Shown here in pieces: positions 7,052-21,127 of a DNA stretch of 64,000 bases. The DNA comes from Candidatus Manganitrophus sp. Lineage in GTDB: Bacteria; Nitrospirota; Nitrospiria; SBBL01; Manganitrophaceae. Each line of letters starts with the position of its first letter. The first letter of the stretch is position 1. Location: contig CP114561.1 in assembly GCA_028865235.1 (NCBI GenBank), forward strand, positions 124,001 to 188,000, in the 5' to 3' direction. A model generated the notes under the pieces. It did no database searches and was not told the origin of the DNA. It saw only the letters and a list, made by a program, of their open reading frames with translations. Both the position numbers and the translations under genes were made by a program.

Positions 7052-8448
7052 CTACTCGATCTCACTTCTCCGTCCTTCTCCCCCCTCTTTGATCCAGACC
7101 GTTTTGATGTTGACGAATTCCCGGATTCCGAAGTCGCTCAGCTCTCTTCCATAACCGGATTGTTTCACCCCGCCGAAGGGAAGACGGGGGTCGGAGGCGA
7201 CCATGGCATTGACAAAGACCATTCCCGCCTCCATTTCATCGATGAAGCGGGCCCGTTCCGCGCGATCGTTCGTCCAGACGCTGCTGCCGAGGCCGAAGAT
7301 GGTATCGTTTGCGAGATCAATCGCTTCATCGATATTCGCGACACGGAAGAGCGAAGCGACCGGACCGAACATTTCTTCGCGATAAGCCGGTGTTTCTTTT
7401 GGAATGTCGGTGAGAACCGTCGGCGGATAATAAAATCCGGGCCGATCGACCGGTTTTCCTCCAGTCAGAAGCCGGGCCCCCCGGACACGCTTTTTCGTAC
7501 CTGCTCATCCAATATCTTCACCTGATCGGCAGTGGCGAGCGGTCCGATATCGGTCTGCTCATCCATCGGATCGCCGATCTTTAGATTTTTCATCGCCTCA
7601 ACAAATTGCCGCTCAAATGGTTCCGCGATCGACTCCGCCACGATGAATCGCTTTGCGGCGATGCACGATTGGCCGTTGTTGATCGTCCTCGCCTGGACGG
7701 CCGTCTTGACCGCCACATTAAGGTCGGCGCTCGGCATGACGATGAAGGGATCGCTTCCGCCGAGTTCCAGAACCGTTTTCTTGATCCGCCGTCCGGCTTC
7801 CCCTCCGATGGCTCTTCCCGCGCCGACGCTCCCGGTCAACGTCGCGGCGCGAATTCGCGGATCATCAATCACACGGGAGACCTTGTCGGAGCCGATCAGG
7901 AGGGTTTGGAACGCCCCTTCCGGAAATCCGGCCCGCGTGAAAACGTCCTCGATGGCGAGAGCGCACTGCGGGACGTTCGATGCATGTTTGAGAAGGGCGA
8001 CATTTCCCGCCATCAACGACGGAACCGCGAAACGAAAGACCTGCCAAAAGGGAAAGTTCCACGGCATGACGGCGAGAATCGGACCGAGCGGCTGGAAGTG
8101 AACACCGCTCCGTGTCGCATCGGTCTTGATCTCAATGTCGGCCAAGAACCGCTCTCCATTTTCGACATAATAACGGCAGGCCCAGGCGCACTTGAGCGCT
8201 TCGGCTTTGGCGGCTTTGATCGGTTTTCCCATCTCGAGGGTCATCAGCCGCCCGAACCGATCTTGTTCCTCTTCGAGGATTCGGGCGGCCTGAATCATCC
8301 ATTTTCCCCGGTCGGCGAAGGAACTCCGGCGATAGGATCGGAAGGTCTCTTCGGCCTTTCCGATCTTTTTATTGATCTGCGATTCGGTCATCGGGTCGAA
8401 TGTTTGAACGGTTTCTCCTGTGGTTGGGTTGATCGTTGCAATTCCCAT
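7052..8448 (-). CDS. NAD(P)-dependent aldehyde dehydrogenase (succinate-semialdehyde type), frameshifted
   Basis: This is an aldehyde dehydrogenase of the short succinate-semialdehyde class (about 465 residues). The N-terminal fragment shows the cofactor region with MPWNFPFW near residue 130, the general-base glutamate E228 in LELGG and the catalytic C262 in NNGQSC. The C-terminal fragment (from 7372) carries MFGPVASL and the [14 protein letters not shown] tail. The break is a missing base near 7477-7484, beside a C6 run. GGAGG lies 7 bases before the ATG. It is the most downstream gene of the accessory block; a fused remnant of a near-identical N-terminus lies at 17.2-17.6 kb. It may oxidise an aldehyde made by the block; the physiological substrate is unknown. 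Confidence 0.85.
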
Positions 8449-8657
8449 GGTTGACCTCCGTGAAATGGAGAAGGTGTTCTTTATTCTAGAAAGTGGGAAA
8501 GAAGGAAAACAATCCGCTGATTAGATGACGGCAATTCGGCTGATCTCTATAAGGTAAGACATCCTGAAGAGGGGGATTTGCCCGGAGACGTAGCAACTTA
8601 TGCGACGCGTCGATGGCCGTCCTCAGGAAGGTATTCGTTCCTTATTTCGGGTGGCCG

Positions 8658-9482
8658 TTACGACCTGATAAAAGCCAGCAGGTCGGCGTTAATGGTGTCG
8701 GCCTCGGTCGTCGGCATGCCGTGCGGAAAACCTTTGTAGGTTTTCAGGGTGCCGTTCTTCAGCAGCTTTGCCGACAGCGGCGCGGAATCGGCATACGGGA
8801 CGATCTGGTCGTCGTCGCCATGCATGACCAGCACCGGCACTGTGATCTTCTTCAGGTCTTCGGTGAAGTCGGTCTGCGAGAAGGCAACGATGCCGTCATA
8901 ATGCGCCTTCGCGCCTCCCATCATTCCCTGACGCCACCAGTTCCAGATCACCGTCTGCGACGGTTTCGCGCCGGGCCGGTTATAGCCATAGAAGGGTCCC
9001 GCCGGCAGATCGTAATAGAACTGAGCCCGATTGGTAGCGACCTGCGCCTGAAATCCGTCAAAAACGTCCTTGGGCAGGCCACCCGGATTGGCCGCTGTCT
9101 TGACCATCAGCGGCGGCACCGCGCTGACAAGCGCCGCCTTCGCGACCCGGCTTTCGCCATGGCGCGCCAGATAATGCGCCACTTCGCCGCCGCCGGTGGA
9201 GTGGCCGACGTGCACCGCATTTTCCAGATTCAAATGTGCGGTCAAAGCCGCGAGGTCGTCGGCATAGTGATCCATGTCATGGCCGCCGCCGGTCTGGGTG
9301 GAGCGGCCATGGCCGCGGCGGTCATGGGCGATCACACGGAAACCTTTGCCGAGAAAGAAGAGCATCTGCGTGTCCCAATCGTCCGCCGAGAGCGGCCAGC
9401 CATGGCTGAATACGATCGGCTGACCGGTGCCCCAATCCTTGTAATAAATCTCCGTTCCATCCTTCATCGTAATTGTATTCAT
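8658..9482 (-). CDS. Alpha/beta hydrolase (non-heme chloroperoxidase/arylesterase-like)
   Basis: This is a 274-residue cofactor-free alpha/beta hydrolase. The nucleophile is S95 in GHSTGGG, the acid is in HGDDDQIVP (about D225) and the base is H254 in GFPHGM. The oxyanion segment is [12 protein letters not shown]. Of two adjacent ATGs, the one at 9482 has the better spacing from AAGGAG. The family shows esterase activity and can perform perhydrolysis to peracids, hence the old haloperoxidase name. It lies between the aldehyde dehydrogenase and the DUF6510 gene. Confidence 0.88.
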
Positions 9483-9580
9483 CATTTTCTCCTTCTTGGT
9501 TTGACGTTCCTCTTGAGGGATGTGATTGTGCATGGCAAGACCAAATCTTGTTTACCGTGCCTTGCGCAAAAAATGAGGCT

Positions 9581-9844
9581 CTATCCTTCTTTTATATGAA
9601 GGACACACACCCCTCGCAGATCTAAAAAGTAGCTCCCCCGGATATGCGCGACGCGGATGAGCGCCGCGTCACACCTGTTACATCGGATGACCGTCCCCAT
9701 CCCGTGCATGTAGGCGGCGGCCGCGCCGATCACATCGTGGGCGCCGCAGCCCGCGCAGGTGGCCTGGGCGAGGGTCATTTCAAAGGGGAAAATCTCCTCC
9801 AAGTTGCCCGCGGCGGCATTGCCGTCGAGTTTATTTTCCATCAT
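9581..9844 (-). CDS. DUF6510 family small zinc-ribbon-like protein
   Basis: This protein of about 87 residues carries two pairs of cysteines (CAGCG and CNRCD) suggesting a metal-binding ribbon. The start at 9844 follows AGGAG. It overlaps the 3' end of the FAD reductase gene by 14 bases, so it is translated with it. Proteins of this type commonly accompany a sulfite-oxidase-like protein and an FAD reductase, as here. The function is unknown. A truncated, frameshifted copy of its C-terminus is fused to an aldehyde dehydrogenase fragment at 17.2 kb. Confidence 0.7.
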   Translation of the reverse strand: MMENKLDGNAAAGNLEEIFPFEMTLAQATCAGCGAHDVIGAAAAYMHGMGTVIRCNRCDAALIRVAHIRGSYFLDLRGVCVLHIKEG

Positions 9845-10601
9845 GTTTTTCTCCTGTCGGTCCGAATCGTTCCGTCTTGATGCGGGCCGGTTCATGTCCC
9901 AGTTTGACCAAAATGGCCGCGGCCGTTTCGACGAAGGGGGTCGGGCCGCAGATAAAGGTCAGCGGACGCTGCGCCACCGGCCAGGCGACCTCGCGCAGCA
10001 TCTGAAGATCGATCCGGCGGGAGTAGCCGGTCCAGCCGGGCGGCTGCGCACGGGTCAATGCCTGCGCCACCTCCAGCATCGCGCTGCGCTTCACCAACCG
10101 GTCGAGTTCGTCCCGGTAGATCATCTCCTCCAGAGAGCGCGACGAGTAGAGCAACCGGGTCGCAACCGTGCTCTCCGCAGCGGCACGGTGGCGCAGCATC
10201 GCCATCAACGGCACGATGCCCGACCCTCCGGCGACCAGCAGGAGGGGGCCGCCCATCTCTGCCTCCCAGACGAAGTAGCCGCCGATCGGGCCGCGCATCT
10301 CCAGCTTATCGCCGACCCGCAGCTCCTCGGTGAGGTAGGGGGAGACCTCCCCGTCATCGAGCCGTTCGACGGTGAGGGTCACCCGCGGCCCGTCCTCGGG
10401 TGAAGAGGCGATGGAATAGCTTCGCTCGGCCCGGTAGCCGTCTTCCGCCGTGAGCCGCACGTCGACGTGCTGCCCCGCCCGATGCCCGCTCCAGCCGGGG
10501 AGATCGAGTGTGATGCTCTTCGTTCGGGCGGTTTCCGGTTGTGTGGCCACCACCTTGCCGAGTTGCCAGGTCAGTCGCCCTGGTAGCGTTCTTCCTTCCA
10601 T
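9831..10601 (-). CDS. FAD/NAD(P)-binding oxidoreductase (ferredoxin reductase-like)
   Basis: This is a 256-residue flavoprotein reductase. The FAD-binding barrel shows RSYSIASSP and GPIGGYFVW. The NAD(P) domain shows LLVAGGSGIVPLMAM and FICGPTPFVE. There is no [2Fe-2S] domain, so it probably passes electrons to a separate partner. It overlaps the upstream sulfite-oxidase-like gene by about 30 bases and the downstream DUF6510 gene by 14, so the three form a tight operon. I infer that it is the electron-transfer partner of the molybdopterin protein. Confidence 0.87.
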   Translation of the reverse strand: MEGRTLPGRLTWQLGKVVATQPETARTKSITLDLPGWSGHRAGQHVDVRLTAEDGYRAERSYSIASSPEDGPRVTLTVERLDDGEVSPYLTEELRVGDKLEMRGPIGGYFVWEAEMGGPLLLVAGGSGIVPLMAMLRHRAAAESTVATRLLYSSRSLEEMIYRDELDRLVKRSAMLEVAQALTRAQPPGWTGYSRRIDLQMLREVAWPVAQRPLTFICGPTPFVETAAAILVKLGHEPARIKTERFGPTGEKHDGK

Positions 10602-11227
10602 GGATCACCGTGATTGTTGTAGCCCAACGACTCCCAGAAACCGGGCTCATCTTCGTCGATCAGACGGAGGCCCCGCACCCACTTGGCGCTTTTCCAAAAG
10701 TAGAGGTGGGGGACCAGCAAACGGGCCGGGCCGCCATGCTCGGGCGCCAGCGGCTCTCCTTCATAGGTATCGACGACCCACGCCTTCCCTCCCGTCACCT
10801 CTTCCAAGGGGAGATTGGTGGTGTAGCCCCCGTCACAGAAGGCGATCACGTATTCGGCCGCCGTGGCGATCTGCGCGAGCAAGACATCAAGCGAGACGCC
10901 CTCCCAGTGCGTGTCGAGCTTCGACCACTTGGTCACACAGTGAATGTCCCGGGTGATCGTCTCGCGCGGGAGGGTATGAAATTCGTCCCAGCTCCACCGT
11001 TTTGGCTGATCAACCGCTCCGACAATGGAAAAATCCCACTCTGCGAGCGATGTATGTGGGGTCGGCCCCGCCGAAAGGACGGGAAAGTCCCGCTCAAGAT
11101 ACTGTCCCGGAGGGAGTCGTTCGTTGACCTCGCTCTTCTGCCGGCGACCGTGAAACCCGCGTGAGAAGAAACCTTCACCCATCTCTTCGTCTCCTTCTTC
11201 CATCGCCTTATTTCCGCGGTTCAGCAT
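10571..11227 (-). CDS. Sulfite oxidase-like molybdopterin oxidoreductase
   Basis: This is a small soluble protein (218 residues, or about 203 if it starts at ATG 11182, which follows GGAG by 8 bases) with the oxidoreductase molybdopterin-binding fold. The likely molybdenum-ligating cysteine lies in DIHCVTKWSKLDTHWEGV. There is no Tat signal, no heme domain and no dimerisation domain, unlike true sulfite oxidase, so the substrate is open. It is the first gene of a three-gene unit with an FAD reductase and a DUF6510 protein. Confidence 0.85.
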   Translation of the reverse strand: MLNRGNKAMEEGDEEMGEGFFSRGFHGRRQKSEVNERLPPGQYLERDFPVLSAGPTPHTSLAEWDFSIVGAVDQPKRWSWDEFHTLPRETITRDIHCVTKWSKLDTHWEGVSLDVLLAQIATAAEYVIAFCDGGYTTNLPLEEVTGGKAWVVDTYEGEPLAPEHGGPARLLVPHLYFWKSAKWVRGLRLIDEDEPGFWESLGYNNHGDPWKEERYQGD

Positions 11228-12129: not shown

Positions 12130-12616
12130 TTATTCGTGACGCATTTGCACTGGCAAATCGAACGTCACTATCTTGGTCTGTCCGGGAAAGATTTGATGGT
12201 TGGCGTTGACCAACTCAATCCGCACCTTATGCTTCCCGGCCGGCAGGCCGGCGATGTCGATTGTATTGCTGTCGCTCGCGTCCGCCCACCACCAGGACTG
12301 GTCGTCGACGGTGACGTGCAGATGGCCAGCCCGCGGAGATGTTTTTGGTGGCGCCCTCCCCGAACACCGGTACAATGCGCAAGTTCTCCACCCGGTACTG
12401 TATCCAGACGACTCCGATCGCGAGTCCTTCCGGAAGCGGTGGGTCCACGATCAGTTTGGGCGCCGGTTCGTTCTTGATTTCGACGTACGGCGACGCGCCG
12501 CGGATATCCTTCGCGCTCTGAGGTGTCGGCTCTGCATCGGTGCGGATAGATGTTTGTGCCAGGACGAAGCCGACTACCATCGCAACTGCAACTGGGAATA
12601 AGGCACTCCGTTTCAT
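12130..12616 (-). CDS. DUF6130 family secreted protein, frameshifted
   Basis: This is a protein of about 160 residues with a signal peptide (MKRSALFPVAVAMVVGFVLA). The start ATG at 12616 has AAGGAG 7 bases upstream. The mature part contains HLHVTVDDQSWWWADAS and GLPAGKHKVRIELVNANHQ, an immunoglobulin-like beta sandwich with a conserved HLH. One extra base near 12324-12330 splits the frame; removal restores it. Function unknown. It lies 72 bases downstream of the lipoxygenase gene, and its conserved histidines might bind a metal, which is inference only. Confidence 0.7.
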
Positions 12617-12688
12617 AAAGACTCTCCTTTCAATTTGTGACATTCAACCTTTCGGTCGTTTTATACGTGTCCTTTGCTTTCCTTTGAT

Positions 12689-14554
12689 TCAAATGTTGAT
12701 GCTCTGCGGAATCTTCGAGGGGAGGAGAAACTCGTACGGCGTGCGCATCTTGTTCCGCTGATTGATCTCTTCTTCGATCTTGACCAACTCTTGTTGGAAC
12801 TTGGCCAGGTAATTCTGAATGGCCGGGTCGGTGAAGTAATTGTCTCCGTAATCGCCCAGTCTCGTGTAATAGACCGAGCTTAATAGATACAAAATGTCCA
12901 ACAGCGCCTTTGCGATATCCAATGGTGGCAGGAATTTCAAGAAGTCATTTTCACGGAAGCCTTCCCGCGTCAGGGACGACAACGGCGAATAGCCTGCCGG
13001 TGGCGTCGCAGGCAGATAGCTCATCAGCGGAGCCTGCGGAAAGTTCACTGCAGCATGCTGCGCGCTGGCGGTGAAACAGATCAGCGTAATTAAGTCGACC
13101 AATTCCGTACGCTTGCTGATCCGGTTCGCCGAGCCGATGTTGTTCAATCTGCCCCCGTCGCGCGAAACCAACTCCGTTACCCAGTTCTGCAACTCTGTAT
13201 CGGCTTGCACCGCTGCATCCGACGTATAGTAGTAATTCACATAGTTTTCCACCCATTGATGGATTGCACCCCAGAGCAGCAGCGCGTCGTCGCGATAGGG
13301 GTAATCCGGCAAACGGCTCGCGTCATCTACGCCGCGTTGAGCGAGCGTCTGGGGCAGCATCGAAGTGTTGAGATTCTGCTGATAGCTCTGCGCGGCTTTC
13401 ACGGCGAACACGCGCGATTGATCTATCGAACTTGCCAACAACAGATCTACAAGGCCTCGCGGTGCAAGCAGACCCAAGGCACCTTCGTTGATTGCGAGCG
13501 TTCCTTTAAAGTGCGGCGTGAGCAAAAGAAAGAGCGGATGCGTGCGCGACAACTGGTTATGCGTCGCAATAACGAACGGTTCGATGAACAGGTGCGTCTG
13601 TCCAAGATGGCTGACGGCTTGATGAATATTGGTATCCGCAACCTGAACGATGCTTTTGGCCATGAACCAGTGATCGCCATCGTGCGGCAGGAAGATCGGA
13701 TGATCCGTGCCCGGCTTTGGCCCACACTGAATCGCCACCGGGACGAGCGATCGCCCGCCCGGCGGGACCGCGAACAAAGCCAGCGGCGCATAGTTGAACT
13801 TCTGTCCCGCCGGAAAACTGCCGTTTACGGCTCCCTCAAACGCGGAATAGTCGGCTAAATAAAGCCGTCCGTCAGCCAGCGCCGTCATTAGCGTGTCTTG
13901 AGTCCCGATCACCGCCTGATACTGTTCATTAGTAATCGGAAGTCGCTCATCCAGCGTTTTCATTCGCTGAATTGTTAACGGATTCGGCCCAGCCACCCGC
14001 ATGGCGGCAAACTCCGAATCCTCTCGAAAATTCCGGCTGATCGCCGGCAATGAAATGAACTGAAACACTTGGCTGTAATCTTCGAGGCTCGAAGCGGGAC
14101 CGGAAACAGATCCCAACTGCTGAACGATCCCGCCGATTTCGTACAAAGTCTTAAGGTTGAGCGTCGGAGCAATCGGTTCTATTACAACTTCCAGTAGTGC
14201 TTTCAATTGGGCTGGCGTCGTCGGCGAACCTTGTTTCTCTAACTCCATGGCAATTGCGTTATTCAGGTCACGTCCGGCTTCGCCCTCCAACTGCCGAGCG
14301 ACGGCCTGAATATTTTTGAGCACTTGTTGAACGAATTCGATATTGTCCCCTGTGTTTTTGATTCCGATCATGATCGTGTTGATTAGAATCTTCAGTGCCG
14401 AGCGCGCAACCAGATGTATCCAATCCGGCCGGGCAGAAAAGGCTTCTATATCAGGCAAAGCGCCTGACATCGCCAGGGGCGGGAGTCTGGCATAGTCATA
14501 GGTGTACTGGGTTGTCGGCTTGATTTTTTCTGTCGTGGCGGCAACTCTGCTCAT
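12689..14554 (-). CDS. Bacterial lipoxygenase
   Basis: This is a 621-residue iron lipoxygenase that would add O2 to polyunsaturated fatty acids to make hydroperoxides. All five expected iron ligands can be placed by comparison with plant enzymes: H316 and H321 in SHLGQTH, H500 and N504 in QHAAVNF, and the C-terminal isoleucine I621. The family segment EPFVIATHNQLSRTHP is also present. No PLAT domain and no signal peptide are seen. The start is ATG 14554 with AAAGGA upstream. A 12-base palindrome (14569-14580) lies just before the ribosome site. The gene sits between a catalase-like hemoprotein and a DUF6130 gene. Lipoxygenases are uncommon in bacteria, so transfer is likely. Confidence 0.93.
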   Translation of the reverse strand: MSRVAATTEKIKPTTQYTYDYARLPPLAMSGALPDIEAFSARPDWIHLVARSALKILINTIMIGIKNTGDNIEFVQQVLKNIQAVARQLEGEAGRDLNNAIAMELEKQGSPTTPAQLKALLEVVIEPIAPTLNLKTLYEIGGIVQQLGSVSGPASSLEDYSQVFQFISLPAISRNFREDSEFAAMRVAGPNPLTIQRMKTLDERLPITNEQYQAVIGTQDTLMTALADGRLYLADYSAFEGAVNGSFPAGQKFNYAPLALFAVPPGGRSLVPVAIQCGPKPGTDHPIFLPHDGDHWFMAKSIVQVADTNIHQAVSHLGQTHLFIEPFVIATHNQLSRTHPLFLLLTPHFKGTLAINEGALGLLAPRGLVDLLLASSIDQSRVFAVKAAQSYQQNLNTSMLPQTLAQRGVDDASRLPDYPYRDDALLLWGAIHQWVENYVNYYYTSDAAVQADTELQNWVTELVSRDGGRLNNIGSANRISKRTELVDLITLICFTASAQHAAVNFPQAPLMSYLPATPPAGYSPLSSLTREGFRENDFLKFLPPLDIAKALLDILYLLSSVYYTRLGDYGDNYFTDPAIQNYLAKFQQELVKIEEEINQRNKMRTPYEFLLPSKIPQSINI

Positions 14555-14628
14555 GGCTTTCCTTTCAAGCAAGCGCTTGCATTCGCTTTTAAATCTGGAT
14601 TCGATATGAACGTCGTCCGACTTTACCG

Positions 14629-15783
14629 TCAGGCGGCCATCTGCTCCCCGAAAACTTCCGCCTGATTCTTCGGTTCCTTACGCTCCTGGTGGTTTGCTTG
14701 GTGGCGAAGGATCGATGACTGCCGGTAGACCTCCTTGCGCGAACGCATAATGTTGCCGAGCGGGCGATGTTCCTCCGTCACGCGCCAGGCTGCCATCGAG
14801 GTTTTGTCCATCCTCTCGAAATTGTCTTCCCCGCCGATATCCTGCTGAGGGAGCCGCAATTTCGCGACGGTCACATACGGCGAGAGGCTCTCGGGCCAGA
14901 CCACCGTCGTTTTCTCAACAGGCATTTGATTCAGATCCGTGGAGAGCTGGACCTGGACGTCGAATTCGTAGGGTCGCTCGCGCAGCTCCGCTACCAGCGC
15001 TGGCCGGAAGACTTGTTCGGCAGAAGTGAGGTCGAGCGCTCGCCGTTCAACGCGGTCGGCGAACGATTGAACCGGGGCCACACGAACCTTTGCGATGTAA
15101 TCGCCATGCCGCACCGCACCCATCGTCCAATACGTCGAGAGGAGGAGATTCACCGGCTTGGTTTGCGCGAGACGCAGGAAGGCGCCGAGCTCCTCCCATG
15201 CCCACTGCTCCGGAGCCAGCGTCCCTTTGCCCGTAACAAAGTTGTAGAGAAGGCGGTGTAATCCCGCTTGCCTTTCCTCCGGCGTAAGGTTCGCCGGCGG
15301 CGCCAGGCCAAGGTCGGCAAACAAAGATTGAATGAAGACATAATGCGCGAGCGTGTTAACAAAGAAGACCGGGTGGTTGATCAGCGCGTAGTCGAAAGTG
15401 TGACTGTCCGGCTCATCCTCAAGGAGGGTTTTTCCCTCTATCCCGAAAATCTTCAGGCCGATGCCGGTGATCGGTCCCAGGAACCGATCGCTACCAACGT
15501 GATTGGTGCCGTTTGAGAAACGAACCACGGCTTCATGTCGGCCCGGTTTGGCATAGATGCCCTGCGCATATTCGTTTGGCGTTCCACTGAGGATTTCAAA
15601 TTCCGCCCGGGCGAGGCCGTAACCCTTGGCATGGGCGTTGCGCACCATCAGCCCGATCCCCTCGGTTTTAACCGAGCCGCGCATGTGCTGTTTCATGTCA
15701 TCGAGGATCTGCTGCAGGGTTTGGTCGAAACCGGGCTCGGTCTGTTCAACGTCGGGACTGTAGCGGACAAAATTCTGAGTCAT
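14629..15783 (-). CDS. Catalase-related hemoprotein (allene oxide synthase-like candidate)
   Basis: This is a 384-residue catalase-fold protein, shorter than true catalases (480 or more). The likely distal heme histidine is H51 in AHAKGYG and the likely proximal tyrosine is near residue 353 in RSRKEVY. The conserved VRFSNG and HPVFFVN segments are visible. The start is ATG 15783 with AAGGAG upstream. It lies 74 bases upstream of the lipoxygenase on the same strand. Known relatives paired or fused with lipoxygenases convert fatty-acid hydroperoxides to allene oxides or related epoxides; other relatives are simple peroxidases or catalases. The pairing favours a fatty-acid hydroperoxide substrate, but this is inference. 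Confidence 0.85.
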   Translation of the reverse strand: MTQNFVRYSPDVEQTEPGFDQTLQQILDDMKQHMRGSVKTEGIGLMVRNAHAKGYGLARAEFEILSGTPNEYAQGIYAKPGRHEAVVRFSNGTNHVGSDRFLGPITGIGLKIFGIEGKTLLEDEPDSHTFDYALINHPVFFVNTLAHYVFIQSLFADLGLAPPANLTPEERQAGLHRLLYNFVTGKGTLAPEQWAWEELGAFLRLAQTKPVNLLLSTYWTMGAVRHGDYIAKVRVAPVQSFADRVERRALDLTSAEQVFRPALVAELRERPYEFDVQVQLSTDLNQMPVEKTTVVWPESLSPYVTVAKLRLPQQDIGGEDNFERMDKTSMAAWRVTEEHRPLGNIMRSRKEVYRQSSILRHQANHQERKEPKNQAEVFGEQMAA

Positions 15784-15883
15784 GGGTATCTCCTTTCGAA
15801 TCATTGCACCGGCTGCGAGCGATCTACCAGAGGGCGCTCAACAATGCCGCATACGGGGTTCACTCCGACTGACCGCTTGGTCT

Positions 15884-17124
15884 CTATTTGCGCAGCGGTC
15901 TGAAACCGACGCGGACCTCTTCTGAAAAGAGCTGCGGCTGCTCCCAGGCCGCGAAGTGTGTCCCCTTATCGAGCTTGTTGTAGTGAATAAGCTTCGGATA
16001 GGCCCGCTCCGCCCAGCTCCGCGGGGCGGTGTAGATCTCGTCGGGGAAGGCGCTCACGGCGACCGGGAGCTGGACCCCCCTCGCATCGAAGAAACCACCC
16101 TTTGCCGGAAGCTGCCGGGTGTCCCAGTAGAGGCGGGCCGAGGAGATCGCGGTGTTCGTCAGCCAGTAAAGGGTGACGTTGTCGAGGACGTCGTCCCGCG
16201 ACAGCCCCTCCTTCTTCCCGTCGAAGACCCGGGCGATCATCTCATAGCTCCGCGCGTCGTGGTCGAGCATCCAGGCCGCGAGGCCGATCGGAGAGTCGGC
16301 CAGCCCGTAGAGCGTCTGGGGGCGGAGGCCCATCTCGTTGGCGTAGCCGAGCCCCTTCTTGTAGAAAAAGTCGAGCTGGTCCCAAGCGTGCTGCTCGTCG
16401 GCGGTGAGATCCGCCGGCGGCGCCTCGTTGGACGCGAGCGCCTTTGCAATGTCGGGTGGAACGGTGGCCGGCATGTTGGTGTGAATGCCGAGCAATCCCG
16501 GCGGCTGCTGCAGGGCCATCGTCTCCGAGACGGCATTCCCCCAATCGCCCCCTGCGCCACGAACTGGGTGTATCCGAGACGCTGCATCAGGGTTGTCCAG
16601 GCACGGGCGATGCTGACTGGGTTCCAGCCGGGCGCCGTCGGCTTGCCGGAGAAGCCGTAGCCCGGCAGCGATGGAATCACGAGATGGAACGCATCCGAGG
16701 CAGCCGCGCCGTGCGCGGTCGGATCGGTCAGCGGCCCGATGACCTTCATCTGCTCGATGATCGAGCCGGGCCATCCGTGCGTGATGATCAGCGGCATTGC
16801 GTTCTCATGCTTCGAGCGGACATGAATGAAATGAATGTCGAGTCCGTCGATCTCCGTGATGAAGTTCGGCACCGCGTTCAGCCGCGCCTCGGCCTTGCGC
16901 CAGTCGTAATCAGTTCCCCAGTAGCGCGCGAGCTGCTGCATCGTCGCGAGCTGCACCCCCTGCGAGCCATCCGTGACCGTTTCCCGCTCGGGCCACTTAG
17001 TTGCCTTAATGCGCTTGCGCAAATCGGCGAGGTCAGTGTCCGGAAAACTCACGCGAAATGGACGAACCGCCTCTTCGTCGGCGGGCTGCTTGCCCCCTTT
17101 TTGTCTCGGACTGGCTTGGGCCAT
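15884..17124 (-). CDS. Epoxide hydrolase (EHN + alpha/beta hydrolase), frameshifted
   Basis: This is a two-domain epoxide hydrolase of about 413 residues. The N-terminal EHN domain spans about residues 20-125. The hydrolase core has the HGWPGS oxyanion motif near residue 117, nucleophile D194 in QGGDWG, and the catalytic histidine in KGTHFAAWEQP near the C-terminus. A one-base deletion in a G run (C5 at 16548-16552 on the plus strand) lies exactly at the nucleophile motif; adding one base restores QGGDWG. AAGGAGG precedes the ATG. It is the first complete gene of the leftward block, 100 bases upstream of the catalase-like gene, so it could hydrolyse epoxides derived from lipoxygenase products. 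Confidence 0.88.
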
Positions 17125-17222
17125 GGTCTCCTCCTTTTGAGTCGTTTTGGATTTTTAGTATGTGCGTGCCCAGGCGTTGAGTCGGTAGCGCATTGCGCAA
17201 AAGGTTCTGCCTTACCATTCTT

Positions 17223-17612
17223 TTATTTGAAGGACACATACACCTCGCATATCGAGCAAGTAGCTTCCCCTGATATGCGTGACGCGGATAAGCGCCGCGT
17301 CACATCTGTTGCAGCGGATGATCGTCCCCATCCTTGCATGTAGGCGGCGGCCGCACCGATTACATCGATGGCGCCACAGCCCGCACAGAGGGCCTGAGCC
17401 AGAGTCATCAGCCGCCCGAACAGATCTTGTTCCTCTTCGAGGATTCGGGCGGCCTGAATCATCCAATTTCCCCGGTCGGCGAAGGAACTCCGACGATAGG
17501 ATCGGAAGGTCTCTGCGGCCTTTCCGATCTTTTCATCGATCTGCGGATCGGTCAGCGGGGAAAACGTTTTGATGATTTTTCCTGTTGCCGGATTGATGGT
17601 TGCGATGGCCAT
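17223..17612 (-). pseudogene. Fused remnant: aldehyde dehydrogenase N-terminus + DUF6510 C-terminus
   Basis: The first 71 codons match the N-terminus of the aldehyde dehydrogenase at 7-8.4 kb (MAIATINPATG to RLMTL). The sequence then switches directly into the DUF6510 coding sequence (AQALCAGCGAIDVIGAAAAYM), matching the gene at 9.6 kb. The two intact genes share the short string CGAGGGTCAT at the equivalent junction points, which suggests a recombination deletion at microhomology. A further one-base deletion near 17335 takes the DUF6510 tail out of frame. It is therefore unlikely to encode a working protein. It lies immediately upstream of the epoxide hydrolase. Confidence 0.8.
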
Positions 17613-18301: not shown

Positions 18302-21127
18302 TTACTCTTTCGCGATCCCTGCGGCGACCAGGTCGATCGACGGTTCCCCGGCGTGGCGGACGATCTCGGCCTTGGCAAGATCCCTCAGTCGGACGATCTG
18401 CCGCCAGTCCTTTCCCTCGGGATGGATCGGCTTGCCGATGGTCACCTGGATCGGTCCGCGGCGGGGGACCCAACGGCCGGGCCAAAGAACTTCGCGGGCG
18501 CCCCGGATGGCGACGGGGCAGATCGGCCGTCCGGTTTCCGCGGCGACTTTGAACGCTCCCAACCGGAACGGACGGATCCCCCGGAATCGCGAGAAGGTCC
18601 CTTCCGGAAAGATCAAAACGGAGTGGCCCTGCCGGAGCGCCTCCTCGATTCGGCGAGTGGTGGTGACGCTTTCGGTAAAGTCGAGCCGATCGACCGTCAA
18701 ATGGTCCGCCTTTTTAATGAAGGTCCGGATCACCGGCGCCTGCATCAATTCCCGCTTGGCGACAAAGCGAAAACCGGGGGGAAGTGCAGCCATCAAGACG
18801 ACCGCATCGAGGTAGCCGGAGTGATTGGCGACCAGAACGGACGGGCCGGCCTGCGAGAGATGCGCGCTTCCCTCTACCGTCACGGGACAACCGATCCAGG
18901 AGAAGAATCGGCGCGCCCAGGCATGAGAAAGCCGCGCCGGCATCTTCCCCTCCGGGAGAAGGAGCATCGCCGCCCAGACCGGGGGAATGGTCAGGAGCGC
19001 GATCAATCCGACATAAACGGTATAAACCAGACGGCCGAACGAGGAGAACGTCTGCTTCAAACGCCCGCCGAGACCGGAGAACCATATCCGGGCGATCTGA
19101 AACGCGGGGGGACGACGCGGCGGACCCATCTCTCCTTTCAGGTAGGCGCTCCGCAATGCGGCGCGGCGGAGCTTGCCGCTGGAGGTCTTCGGGATCGTGT
19201 CCGGGGGAACCAGCGAGACGATATCGGGGCGGATATCGGTGACGGCGGCCACCTTCTCCATGACCTCGCCGATCAACCGGCGCCGCGCTTCTTCTTTCTC
19301 CACCCTTGTCTCCGCAACGACGACCAGCTTTTCCGTTCCGATTTCCGGATCGGTGATGCCGAAGGCGGCCACCCGTCCGCGGCGGATTCCGAGAATCTCT
19401 CCGACCGTTTCTTCCACCTCTTGGGGGTAAAGATTCCGGCCCGCCTTGATGATCATGTCTTTGCGGCGGCCGGTCACGAAGAGCTCACCCTCCGCAAGAT
19501 AGGCGAAATCACCCGAGTCGCACCAGCCGTCTTGGAAGGTTTTCTCGGTCGCTTCCGGATCACGATAATATTCTCTCATTGTGGACGGTCCGCGAAATTG
19601 CAGCGCCCCTTCGGTCCGTTCTCCCGCCTCATGACCCGACGCATCGACAATGCGAACCGCATGGCCCGGAAGGGGAGCGCCGCAGGAGACGAATCGAAGC
19701 GGAGACGGCTCGGTGGGAGGGGCCGCCACCGCTTTTCGTTCTCGCTCGAAGGTTTCGCGGGTGATCAGATCGATCCGCGGCGGCCGGCCGACGGGGGGAA
19801 GGTCAGCGCGACCGACGACTCGGCCAGCCCGTAAACCGGAAAAAAAGTTTCCTTTCGAAAGCCGTACGGAGCAAACCGCTTCGTAAATCGCTCGAGTGTC
19901 TCGGGGCTGACCGGCTCGGCCCCGTTGAAGGCGACACGCCAGGAGCTCAGATCGAGTCCTTCGATCGCGCGCTCGTCGATCTTGCGGACGCAAAGTTCGT
20001 AGGCGAAGTTCGGGGCGGCGGAGTGGGTCCCCCGATGATAGTGGATCGCCCAGAGCCATCGCTCCGGCCGGGTCAGAAAGGTCAGCGGCGAGAGGATCGT
20101 GATCGGGATGCCGAAGTAGAGGGCACCGAGCCAGGAGCCGATCAGACCCATGTCGTGATAGAGCGGAAGCCAGCTGACTCCGACATCCCCCGGTCCGATC
20201 TGGGCGGCCTGCCCGATGGCGCGGATGTTGGCGAGGACGTTCTCATGGGCGAGCAGCACCCCTTTGGGAAGGCCGGTGCTTCCGGAGGTGAATTGAATCA
20301 ACGCCGGATCTTCCGCCCGGAGATCGACTTTCGGTCGCTCCGAAGCGGCGCGGCGCAACGCTTCAAACGTCGTCACATCGGATAAACCCGGAACCATCGG
20401 CTGGAGAAGACGCCCCAATCCCTCAACCCGGCCGGAGGCGATCAGAAATCGGGCATCGGCCTTCTGCAGGATGGCGATCTGACGGCGGGCATACTCCTCG
20501 ATCTGATCCATCCGAACGGGAGGATAAAGCGGAACGGGGATCCCTCCGGCGAAGAGGACGCCGAAGAAGGTGAAGAAGAAGTCGGAGCCGGTCGGGAGCA
20601 TCAGCGCCACCGTCTCATGGCGGCGGAGTCCTTGCTCCAAAAGTCCCTGCGCCACGGCGCCGGCGGCGTCGACGAGCTGGCCGTAGGTGATCTTCTGTTC
20701 GGTCCCGTCTTCCTGCGGAAGGTAGATATGGGGGCGATCGGCCTCTCTCTCCGCCCGGCTCAGAAGGACTTCCGGAAGCGAGGAGGCGGAGGCGGGGGGG
20801 CGTGGCGGCGCCGATCGTTTGGATTCTTTCCAAGGAGAGGGGGCGGCCGGGGGCCTCGGAACGGAGCACGGCGCCGGCGAGATCGCGCGGGCTCCTCGCC
20901 TCCGCAACCAGATGCTCCGGAATTCGGACCGAGAACGCTTTTTCGATCCGAAGAATGAGCTCGACCCGCTCCAAACTTCCTAGACCGAGATCCCGATCGA
21001 GGGAGGCGTCTAACGAAACAGCATGCGCGGCCTGTTCCATCCCAAGCTCGGCGACGAACTCGCGGAGGATTGAAAGAACTTTTTGTCTGACGGTCTCACT
21101 CGGATCGGGAAGGCGCTCAGTGGCCAT
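18302..21127 (-). CDS. ACP - fatty acyl-AMP ligase - lysophospholipid acyltransferase fusion, two frameshifts
   Basis: This is a single reading unit of about 940 residues once two indels are repaired. Residues 1-85 are an acyl carrier domain with S51 as the phosphopantetheine site in DLGLGSLERVE. Next is an AMP-binding ligase (FTSGSTGLPKGV, then GWCDSGDFAYL and the C-terminal lysine region PKTSSGKLRR). A membrane segment follows (VYVGLIALLTIPPVWAAMLLL), then a PlsC-type acyltransferase (NHSGYLD and FPEGTFSRF). The indels are an extra base in G7 at 20794-20800 and a missing base in G6 at 19793-19798. The likely role is to activate a free fatty acid as acyl-AMP, load it on the attached ACP and transfer it to a lysolipid. 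The ATG at 21127 has GGAG 8 bases upstream. Confidence 0.85.

What the first reader, a model, noticed from the sequence alone, without database searches (positions are those of the whole stretch)
12130..17124. Candidate bacterial oxylipin pathway: lipoxygenase, catalase-related hemoprotein and epoxide hydrolase in one operon
Seen: three same-strand genes with intact active-site residues (lipoxygenase H316, H321, H500, N504, I621; hemoprotein H51 and a C-terminal Tyr; epoxide hydrolase D194 after one repaired base), plus a DUF6130 protein. Known: catalase-related proteins paired or fused with lipoxygenases turn fatty-acid hydroperoxides into allene oxides or other epoxides. Inference: a linear route polyunsaturated fatty acid to hydroperoxide to epoxide to diol, with the aldehyde dehydrogenase and hydrolases nearby as further steps. 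Which fatty acid it would use is unclear, since most bacteria lack polyunsaturated lipids.
Basis: partly seen in the sequence, partly recalled or inferred. Interest (0 to 1): 0.75.

Follow-up and report, generated by a model that had tools for sequence, protein, structure and literature searches.

The report
Mobile lipoxygenase–catalase-like gene pair
This bacterium carries a horizontally acquired two-gene unit: a lipoxygenase, which makes fatty-acid peroxides, next to a catalase-like heme protein that probably consumes them. Unrelated bacteria have built the same pairing at least three times, but the neighbouring epoxide hydrolase was already there and is probably not a dedicated third step.

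Summary
An intact lipoxygenase (LOX; ligands H316, H321, H500, N504, I621) follows an intact catalase-family hemoprotein (R48, H51, N136, R349, Y353) on the minus strand, downstream of a frameshifted epoxide hydrolase. The LOX–hemoprotein link is supported. The same pair occurs in a Pyrinomonadaceae MAG (89%/93% aa identity; dN/dS 0.21/0.10), and LOX is next to other hemoproteins of this superfamily in Fodinicola (divergent) and in an unnamed acidobacterial genome (LOX–hemoprotein–LOX, overlapping start and stop codons). On the tree these are three separate acquisitions.

Two parts of the interpretation fail. (1) The epoxide hydrolase is not tied to the pair: a close relative has the same gene island with an intact hydrolase but no pair, and none of the other LOX loci examined has such a hydrolase. 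(2) Nothing singles the hemoprotein out as an allene oxide synthase. It has Ala-His instead of the Thr-His of coral cAOS, and its profile matches catalases and MAP-2744c (E ~1e-10) far better than cAOS (0.01). Its family normally partners a DyP-type peroxidase (58 of 64 loci); LOX was inserted into that module, and the peroxidase is absent here.

Verdict: new variant of the known LOX–catalase-related pairing. Substrate and product are unknown; no PUFA synthase was found.

The parts
14629..15783 (-). Catalase-family hemoprotein, 384 aa (distal His H51 preceded by Ala50; N136; proximal R349xxxY353)
   Evidence: AlphaFold model pLDDT 93, catalase fold; 93% aa identical copy beside LOX in L021
12689..14554 (-). 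Lipoxygenase, 621 aa, iron ligands H316, H321, H500, N504, I621; Ala430 at the likely stereo-determining (Coffa) site
   Evidence: 89% aa identical copy in L021
14555..14628 (-). Intergenic region hemoprotein to LOX, conserved with L021, Shine-Dalgarno-like GAAAGGAAA before LOX
15887..17124 (-). Epoxide hydrolase of the EHN/microsomal type, in two frames (break near 16530-16560); pre-existing island gene, probably not part of the LOX unit
   Evidence: intact in close relative G002, whose island lacks hemoprotein and LOX
12130..12643 (-). DUF6130 protein with signal-peptide-like N-terminus, in two frames; not next to LOX in L021
17218..17612 (-). Recombination scar: fragment of the aldehyde dehydrogenase N-terminus joined to a DUF6510 fragment, duplicates of genes at 8448 and 9581-9895
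7074..11227 (-). Rest of the island downstream on the same strand: aldehyde dehydrogenase, haloperoxidase-like alpha/beta hydrolase, DUF6510, FAD/NAD oxidoreductase, molybdopterin oxidoreductase (all but the alpha/beta hydrolase shared with G002)

Best explanation
The hemoprotein and LOX form a mobile two-gene unit that makes and then consumes lipid hydroperoxides. LOX dioxygenates a 1,4-pentadiene fatty acid, probably taken up from outside, to a hydroperoxide; the Ala at the Coffa site suggests S-stereochemistry (inferred). The catalase-family hemoprotein then uses its ferric heme to reduce or rearrange that hydroperoxide, more likely as a peroxidase or isomerase than as a true allene oxide synthase (inferred). 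The unit arose when LOX entered a widespread module of DyP-type peroxidase, a conserved unknown protein and this hemoprotein. The hemoprotein-LOX part then reached this genome without the peroxidase and sits next to an epoxide hydrolase that the island already had. Shown: gene integrity, selection, recurrence of the pairing, insertion into a pre-existing island. Inferred: catalytic steps, substrate, direction of transfer.
For: Pair conserved at 90.7% nt over 3104 bases that end at the two genes' outer boundaries, with dN/dS 0.10 and 0.21. In L021 the order is hemoprotein-LOX-unknown-DyP; in its nearest relative L022 it is hemoprotein-unknown-DyP, so LOX was inserted. Only 2 of 25 genomes with relatives of the hemoprotein have any LOX, and in both it is adjacent, although LOX occurs in only 0.5-1.3% of genomes in three phyla. 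In acidobacterial genome G507 a third hemoprotein, 31% identical, starts on the stop codon of one LOX and is followed by a second LOX. Tree: 3 changes to the LOX-neighbour state; a single LOX-linked clade is rejected, p-AU 3e-65. The LOX genes of the three cases also do not group. Known catalase-LOX fusions convert LOX products in cyanobacteria and corals (PMC11719350, PMC5617202). MAP-2744c, the closest small solved relative, is a catalase-related peroxidase (its activity from my own knowledge; match).
Against: No activity data. Most relatives of the hemoprotein partner DyP, not LOX (58 of 64), so it may act on H2O2 or with DyP. [quoted passage not shown] Many LOX loci have no hemoprotein nearby, including the second closest, 59% identical (L095). 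No source of polyunsaturated fatty acid was found in the genome. The Fodinicola genes are frameshifted in that assembly, and the L021 contig is only 8 kb from a MAG.
Confidence: 0.57

Rival explanations
1. One reading: LOX, then a catalase-related allene oxide or epoxide synthase, then the adjacent epoxide hydrolase to a diol, with the aldehyde dehydrogenase and hydrolases as further dedicated steps.
For: All three enzymes lie on one strand; an Anabaena catalase-LOX fusion makes an allylic epoxide that hydrolyses to 9,14-diols (PMC11719350). The heme residues of cAOS other than Thr66 are present.
Against: Ala-His instead of Thr-His. cAOS is not among the 50 best fold matches, and the profile E-value is 0.01 for cAOS against 1e-10 for catalase A and 9e-10 for MAP-2744c. 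Epoxide hydrolase and aldehyde dehydrogenase are in the relative's island without LOX or hemoprotein. No epoxide hydrolase is present at L021 or at the other LOX loci.
Confidence: 0.13
2. The neighbourhood is accidental: the hemoprotein is a DyP-module protein acting on H2O2 or on DyP intermediates, and LOX is an unrelated passenger inserted beside it.
For: The hemoprotein family is linked to DyP in 58 of 64 loci across four phyla and in Deinococcus radiodurans. The closest LOX relative outside L021 has no hemoprotein.
Against: Three independent adjacencies, start-stop overlap in G507, and retention of hemoprotein-LOX but not DyP in the window with both genes under purifying selection.
Confidence: 0.18
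3. The hemoprotein is a protective scavenger: it removes H2O2 or excess lipid peroxide and so protects LOX and the cell, without making a defined oxylipin.
For: Catalase fold; closest small solved relative MAP-2744c is a catalase-related protein with peroxidase activity (activity from own knowledge). The island carries other redox and electrophile-handling genes.
Against: Below Pfam's Catalase cut-off (20.5 against 25 bits); Ala in place of the usual catalase Val before the distal His. The repeated pairing is specifically with LOX or DyP, not with generic stress genes.
Confidence: 0.12

Closest known systems
Catalase-LOX fusion proteins of cyanobacteria (Acaryochloris marina, Anabaena) and AOS-LOX/HPL-LOX of soft corals
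   Same: A catalase-fold hemoprotein coupled one-to-one with a lipoxygenase; same Arg, His, Asn, Arg, Tyr heme residues
   Different: Here two separate genes, hemoprotein first; Ala-His instead of Thr-His; hemoprotein profile far from cAOS (E 0.01)
DyP-type peroxidase + catalase family protein module (e.g. Deinococcus radiodurans, L145; Streptomyces; Acinetobacter plasmid pALWED3.4)
   Same: The hemoprotein is a member of this family (40-93% identity to the near clade)
   Different: In the window DyP and the conserved unknown protein are absent and LOX takes their place
MAP-2744c, 33-kDa catalase-related protein of Mycobacterium avium (PDB 3e4w, 3e4y)
   Same: Small catalase-fold hemoprotein, best-scoring small solved relative (TM 0.71 by target length; E 9e-10)
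   Different: About 20% identity; no LOX neighbour known to me
Bacterial lipoxygenases such as Pseudomonas aeruginosa LoxA (PDB 4g32) and Myxococcus fulvus MF-LOX1
   Same: Same family, ligands and C-terminal Ile; E 2e-113 to PDB 4g32
   Different: 38% identical to the P. aeruginosa enzyme; no obvious signal peptide; paired with a hemoprotein
EHN-type (microsomal-like) epoxide hydrolases
   Same: EHN domain and Asp nucleophile in GGDWG
   Different: Frame broken in this assembly; belongs to the older island, not to the LOX unit

Membership tests
Lipoxygenase (PF00305) | Profile match over the catalytic domain | tested here: met
   224 bits against cut-off 23.6, residues 181-609
Lipoxygenase (PF00305) | Three His, one Asn and the C-terminal Ile as iron ligands | tested here: met
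   H316, H321, H500, N504, I621
Lipoxygenase (PF00305) | Stereo- and regiospecific dioxygenation of a PUFA | not testable with these tools
   Needs enzyme assay
Catalase-related allene oxide synthase (cAOS) | Heme residues Arg64, His67, Asn137, Tyr353 (cAOS numbering, PMC5617202) | tested here: met
   R48, H51, N136, Y353
Catalase-related allene oxide synthase (cAOS) | Thr immediately before the distal His (Thr66-His67) | tested here: not met
   Ala50-His51, also Ala in L021, L080 and G507
Catalase-related allene oxide synthase (cAOS) | Closer in sequence and fold to cAOS than to catalases | tested here: not met
   E 0.0096 for cAOS 1u5u against 1.4e-10 catalase A and 9e-10 MAP-2744c; not in top 50 folds
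Catalase-related allene oxide synthase (cAOS) | Coupled with a lipoxygenase | tested here: met
   Adjacent LOX here and in L021, L080, G507, unfused
Monofunctional heme catalase (PF00199) | Profile match over cut-off | tested here: not met
   20.5 bits against 25
DyP-partnered catalase family protein | Groups inside the family on the tree | tested here: met
   Window and L021 nest with DyP-linked L022 and L015, support 100
DyP-partnered catalase family protein | DyP-type peroxidase within a few kb | tested here: not met
   No DyP match in the 64-kb window; present in 58 of 64 relatives
EHN-type epoxide hydrolase | EHN domain and Asp nucleophile | tested here: met
   EHN 137 bits; GGDWG with D194 read across a frame break, intact in G002
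EHN-type epoxide hydrolase | Other catalytic residues (charge-relay His and acid, lid Tyr) | not tested
   Not examined residue by residue

The most novel reading that the evidence does not exclude
The DyP-linked catalase family hemoproteins are, as a family, bacterial lipid-hydroperoxide enzymes, and LOX is an alternative source of peroxide for them. The recurrent hemoprotein-LOX units in Acidobacteriota, Actinomycetota and the window's lineage would then be an unrecognised free-standing bacterial oxylipin system with its own chemistry at an Ala-His distal site.
Probability: 0.25. Interest if true: 0.75.

Novelty: new variant of a known kind. Interest (0 to 1): 0.55.

Why it matters
Lipoxygenases are rare in bacteria and their purpose is mostly unknown. 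Repeated, independent pairing with one superfamily of heme proteins is a clue to what they are for, and gives a small, expressible two-enzyme system. It also gives a first functional lead for a widespread DyP–catalase-family module, found also in Deinococcus radiodurans, whose DyP is reported inactive at physiological pH (PMC10820274).

Tried and rejected
Phage or viral origin: no LOX match in the phage collection or viral contigs. Plain catalase: below the Pfam cut-off. Single origin of the LOX pairing: rejected by AU test. Epoxide hydrolase as a linked gene elsewhere: an EHN-type match lay near only one of 64 hemoprotein loci (L033, no LOX there) and beside no LOX locus. Host supply of PUFA by a PUFA synthase: no match over cut-off; the FA-desaturase hit looks like a Delta9 enzyme by its GYHRFISHRSF motif. 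RNA or tRNA features: none. Cyanobacterial fusions could not be fetched, so they are not in the tree. The papers on the Thr-His hallmark and on the Acaryochloris enzyme are not held. One neighbourhood listing of L095 gave no usable output.

Full report
What is there. The region 12130-17124 carries, on the minus strand, an epoxide hydrolase gene, a catalase-family hemoprotein, a lipoxygenase (LOX) and a DUF6130 protein. The hemoprotein starts at 15783 (384 aa) and the LOX at 14554 (621 aa). The hydrolase is split between two frames near 16530-16560. A close relative (G002; island flanks 93-96% identical) has the same gene intact, 407 aa, with GGDWG and D194. The flanking AMP-ligase gene is also broken here and open in the relative (951 aa), so assembly indels are the likely cause, though this is not proven. 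DUF6130 is likewise split.

The pair is mobile and selected. A Pyrinomonadaceae MAG contig (L021) has the same hemoprotein–LOX pair, 93% and 89% identical in protein. The 3104-base nucleotide match (90.7%) stops at the outer ends of the two genes. dN/dS is 0.10 for the hemoprotein and 0.21 for LOX. No other genome of the window's genus (5 examined) has the hemoprotein. G002 has the island with aldehyde dehydrogenase, epoxide hydrolase, DUF6510, FAD oxidoreductase and molybdopterin oxidoreductase but no hemoprotein or LOX in it. A scar of aldehyde dehydrogenase and DUF6510 fragments lies just upstream of the hydrolase (17218-17612). The pair was therefore most likely inserted into an older island. 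In the relative the hydrolase belongs to that island, not to the pair.

What the hemoprotein normally does. A scan of 84,980 species genomes with a profile of close relatives gave 64 loci. In 58 of them a DyP-type peroxidase lies within about 5 kb, usually with a conserved unknown protein of about 150-210 aa. Deinococcus radiodurans has the same trio, and the DyP partner's closest solved structures (8re2, 8re3) are the D. radiodurans DyP (PMC10820274). L022, the nearest relative after L021 (88%), has hemoprotein–unknown–DyP; L021 has hemoprotein–LOX–unknown–DyP. LOX was thus inserted into the DyP module. The window keeps hemoprotein–LOX and has no DyP.

Is the LOX link more than chance? LOX is rare: 5 of 396 Acidobacteriota, 2 of 397 Actinomycetota and 3 of 399 Pseudomonadota genomes. 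Two of those (G098 and G120) were known beforehand, so they are not independent draws. Of 25 genomes with a hemoprotein relative, only two have any LOX, and in both the LOX is the hemoprotein's neighbour: L021, and Fodinicola (L080), where it is divergent and both genes are frameshifted. In acidobacterial genome G507 a third, distant hemoprotein (31% identity) begins on the ATGA overlap with one LOX and is followed by another LOX. On the hemoprotein tree the LOX-linked members need three separate changes, and one clade is rejected (p-AU 3e-65). Their LOX genes also fall apart on the LOX tree. At the level of presence and absence alone the overlap in Acidobacteriota is weak (one genome, G507, beyond the seed); it is the adjacency that carries the weight.

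Mechanism. LOX should make a hydroperoxide from a pentadiene fatty acid; Ala at the Coffa site suggests S-stereochemistry (an Ala-to-Gly mutant at that site was studied in M. fulvus LOX, PMC6612559; my placement of the site here is by motif). The hemoprotein has the catalase-type heme residues but Ala, not Thr, before the distal His. [quoted passage not shown] text not read). The family profile hits catalase A and MAP-2744c at about 1e-10 to 1e-9 and cAOS at 0.01. Among fold matches of the window protein MAP-2744c is near the top and cAOS is not in the best 50. For the G507 hemoprotein cAOS ranks third, after MAP-2744c, so that one is closer in shape to cAOS, although it too has Ala-His. The best-supported reading is a peroxidase or isomerase that consumes the LOX product; allene oxide synthesis is possible but not favoured.

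Substrate. No PUFA synthase passes its cut-off, and one desaturase of Delta9-like appearance was found. The genome is 87% complete, so absence is not proof. Exogenous PUFA is the likely source (inference).

Known or new. Catalase–LOX fusions are known from cyanobacteria and corals (PMC11719350, PMC5617202). Free-standing, recurrent hemoprotein–LOX units, and their origin in a DyP module, were not found in the papers searched; that search covers open-licence papers only. I file this as a new variant of a known kind.

Noticed in passing
L016:11194-11829, L021:6622-7248, L022:7298-7924: A conserved protein of about 150-210 aa with no Pfam or NCBIfam match accompanies the DyP-type peroxidase and the catalase family hemoprotein in nearly all loci, across several phyla.
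   Followed up: partly
L145:2856-6089 (Deinococcus radiodurans): The D. radiodurans DyP, reported inactive at physiological pH, is encoded directly between this unknown protein and a catalase family protein; the paper on it does not mention a catalase.
   Followed up: partly
17218-17612: Fused fragments of the aldehyde dehydrogenase and DUF6510 genes, duplicates of genes 8-9 kb away: a recombination scar next to the insertion.
   Followed up: partly
18302-20907, 7074-8448, 12130-12643, 15887-17124: Several genes are split by frameshifts; at least three of them are intact in the close relative G002, which points to indel errors in this assembly.
   Followed up: partly
L097:6745-11340 (G507): LOX-hemoprotein-LOX with an ATGA overlap; the middle protein's model is nearest to MAP-2744c and then to coral allene oxide synthase.
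   Followed up: yes
L008 (G096 C144): In a relative of the same class a catalase-family domain sits at the start of a much longer open frame (1053 aa) whose second part looks like the start of another enzyme.
   Followed up: no
L121 with L122 (G002): Between aldehyde dehydrogenase and epoxide hydrolase the relative's island carries a PolX/PHP-like DNA polymerase gene absent from the window's island.
   Followed up: no
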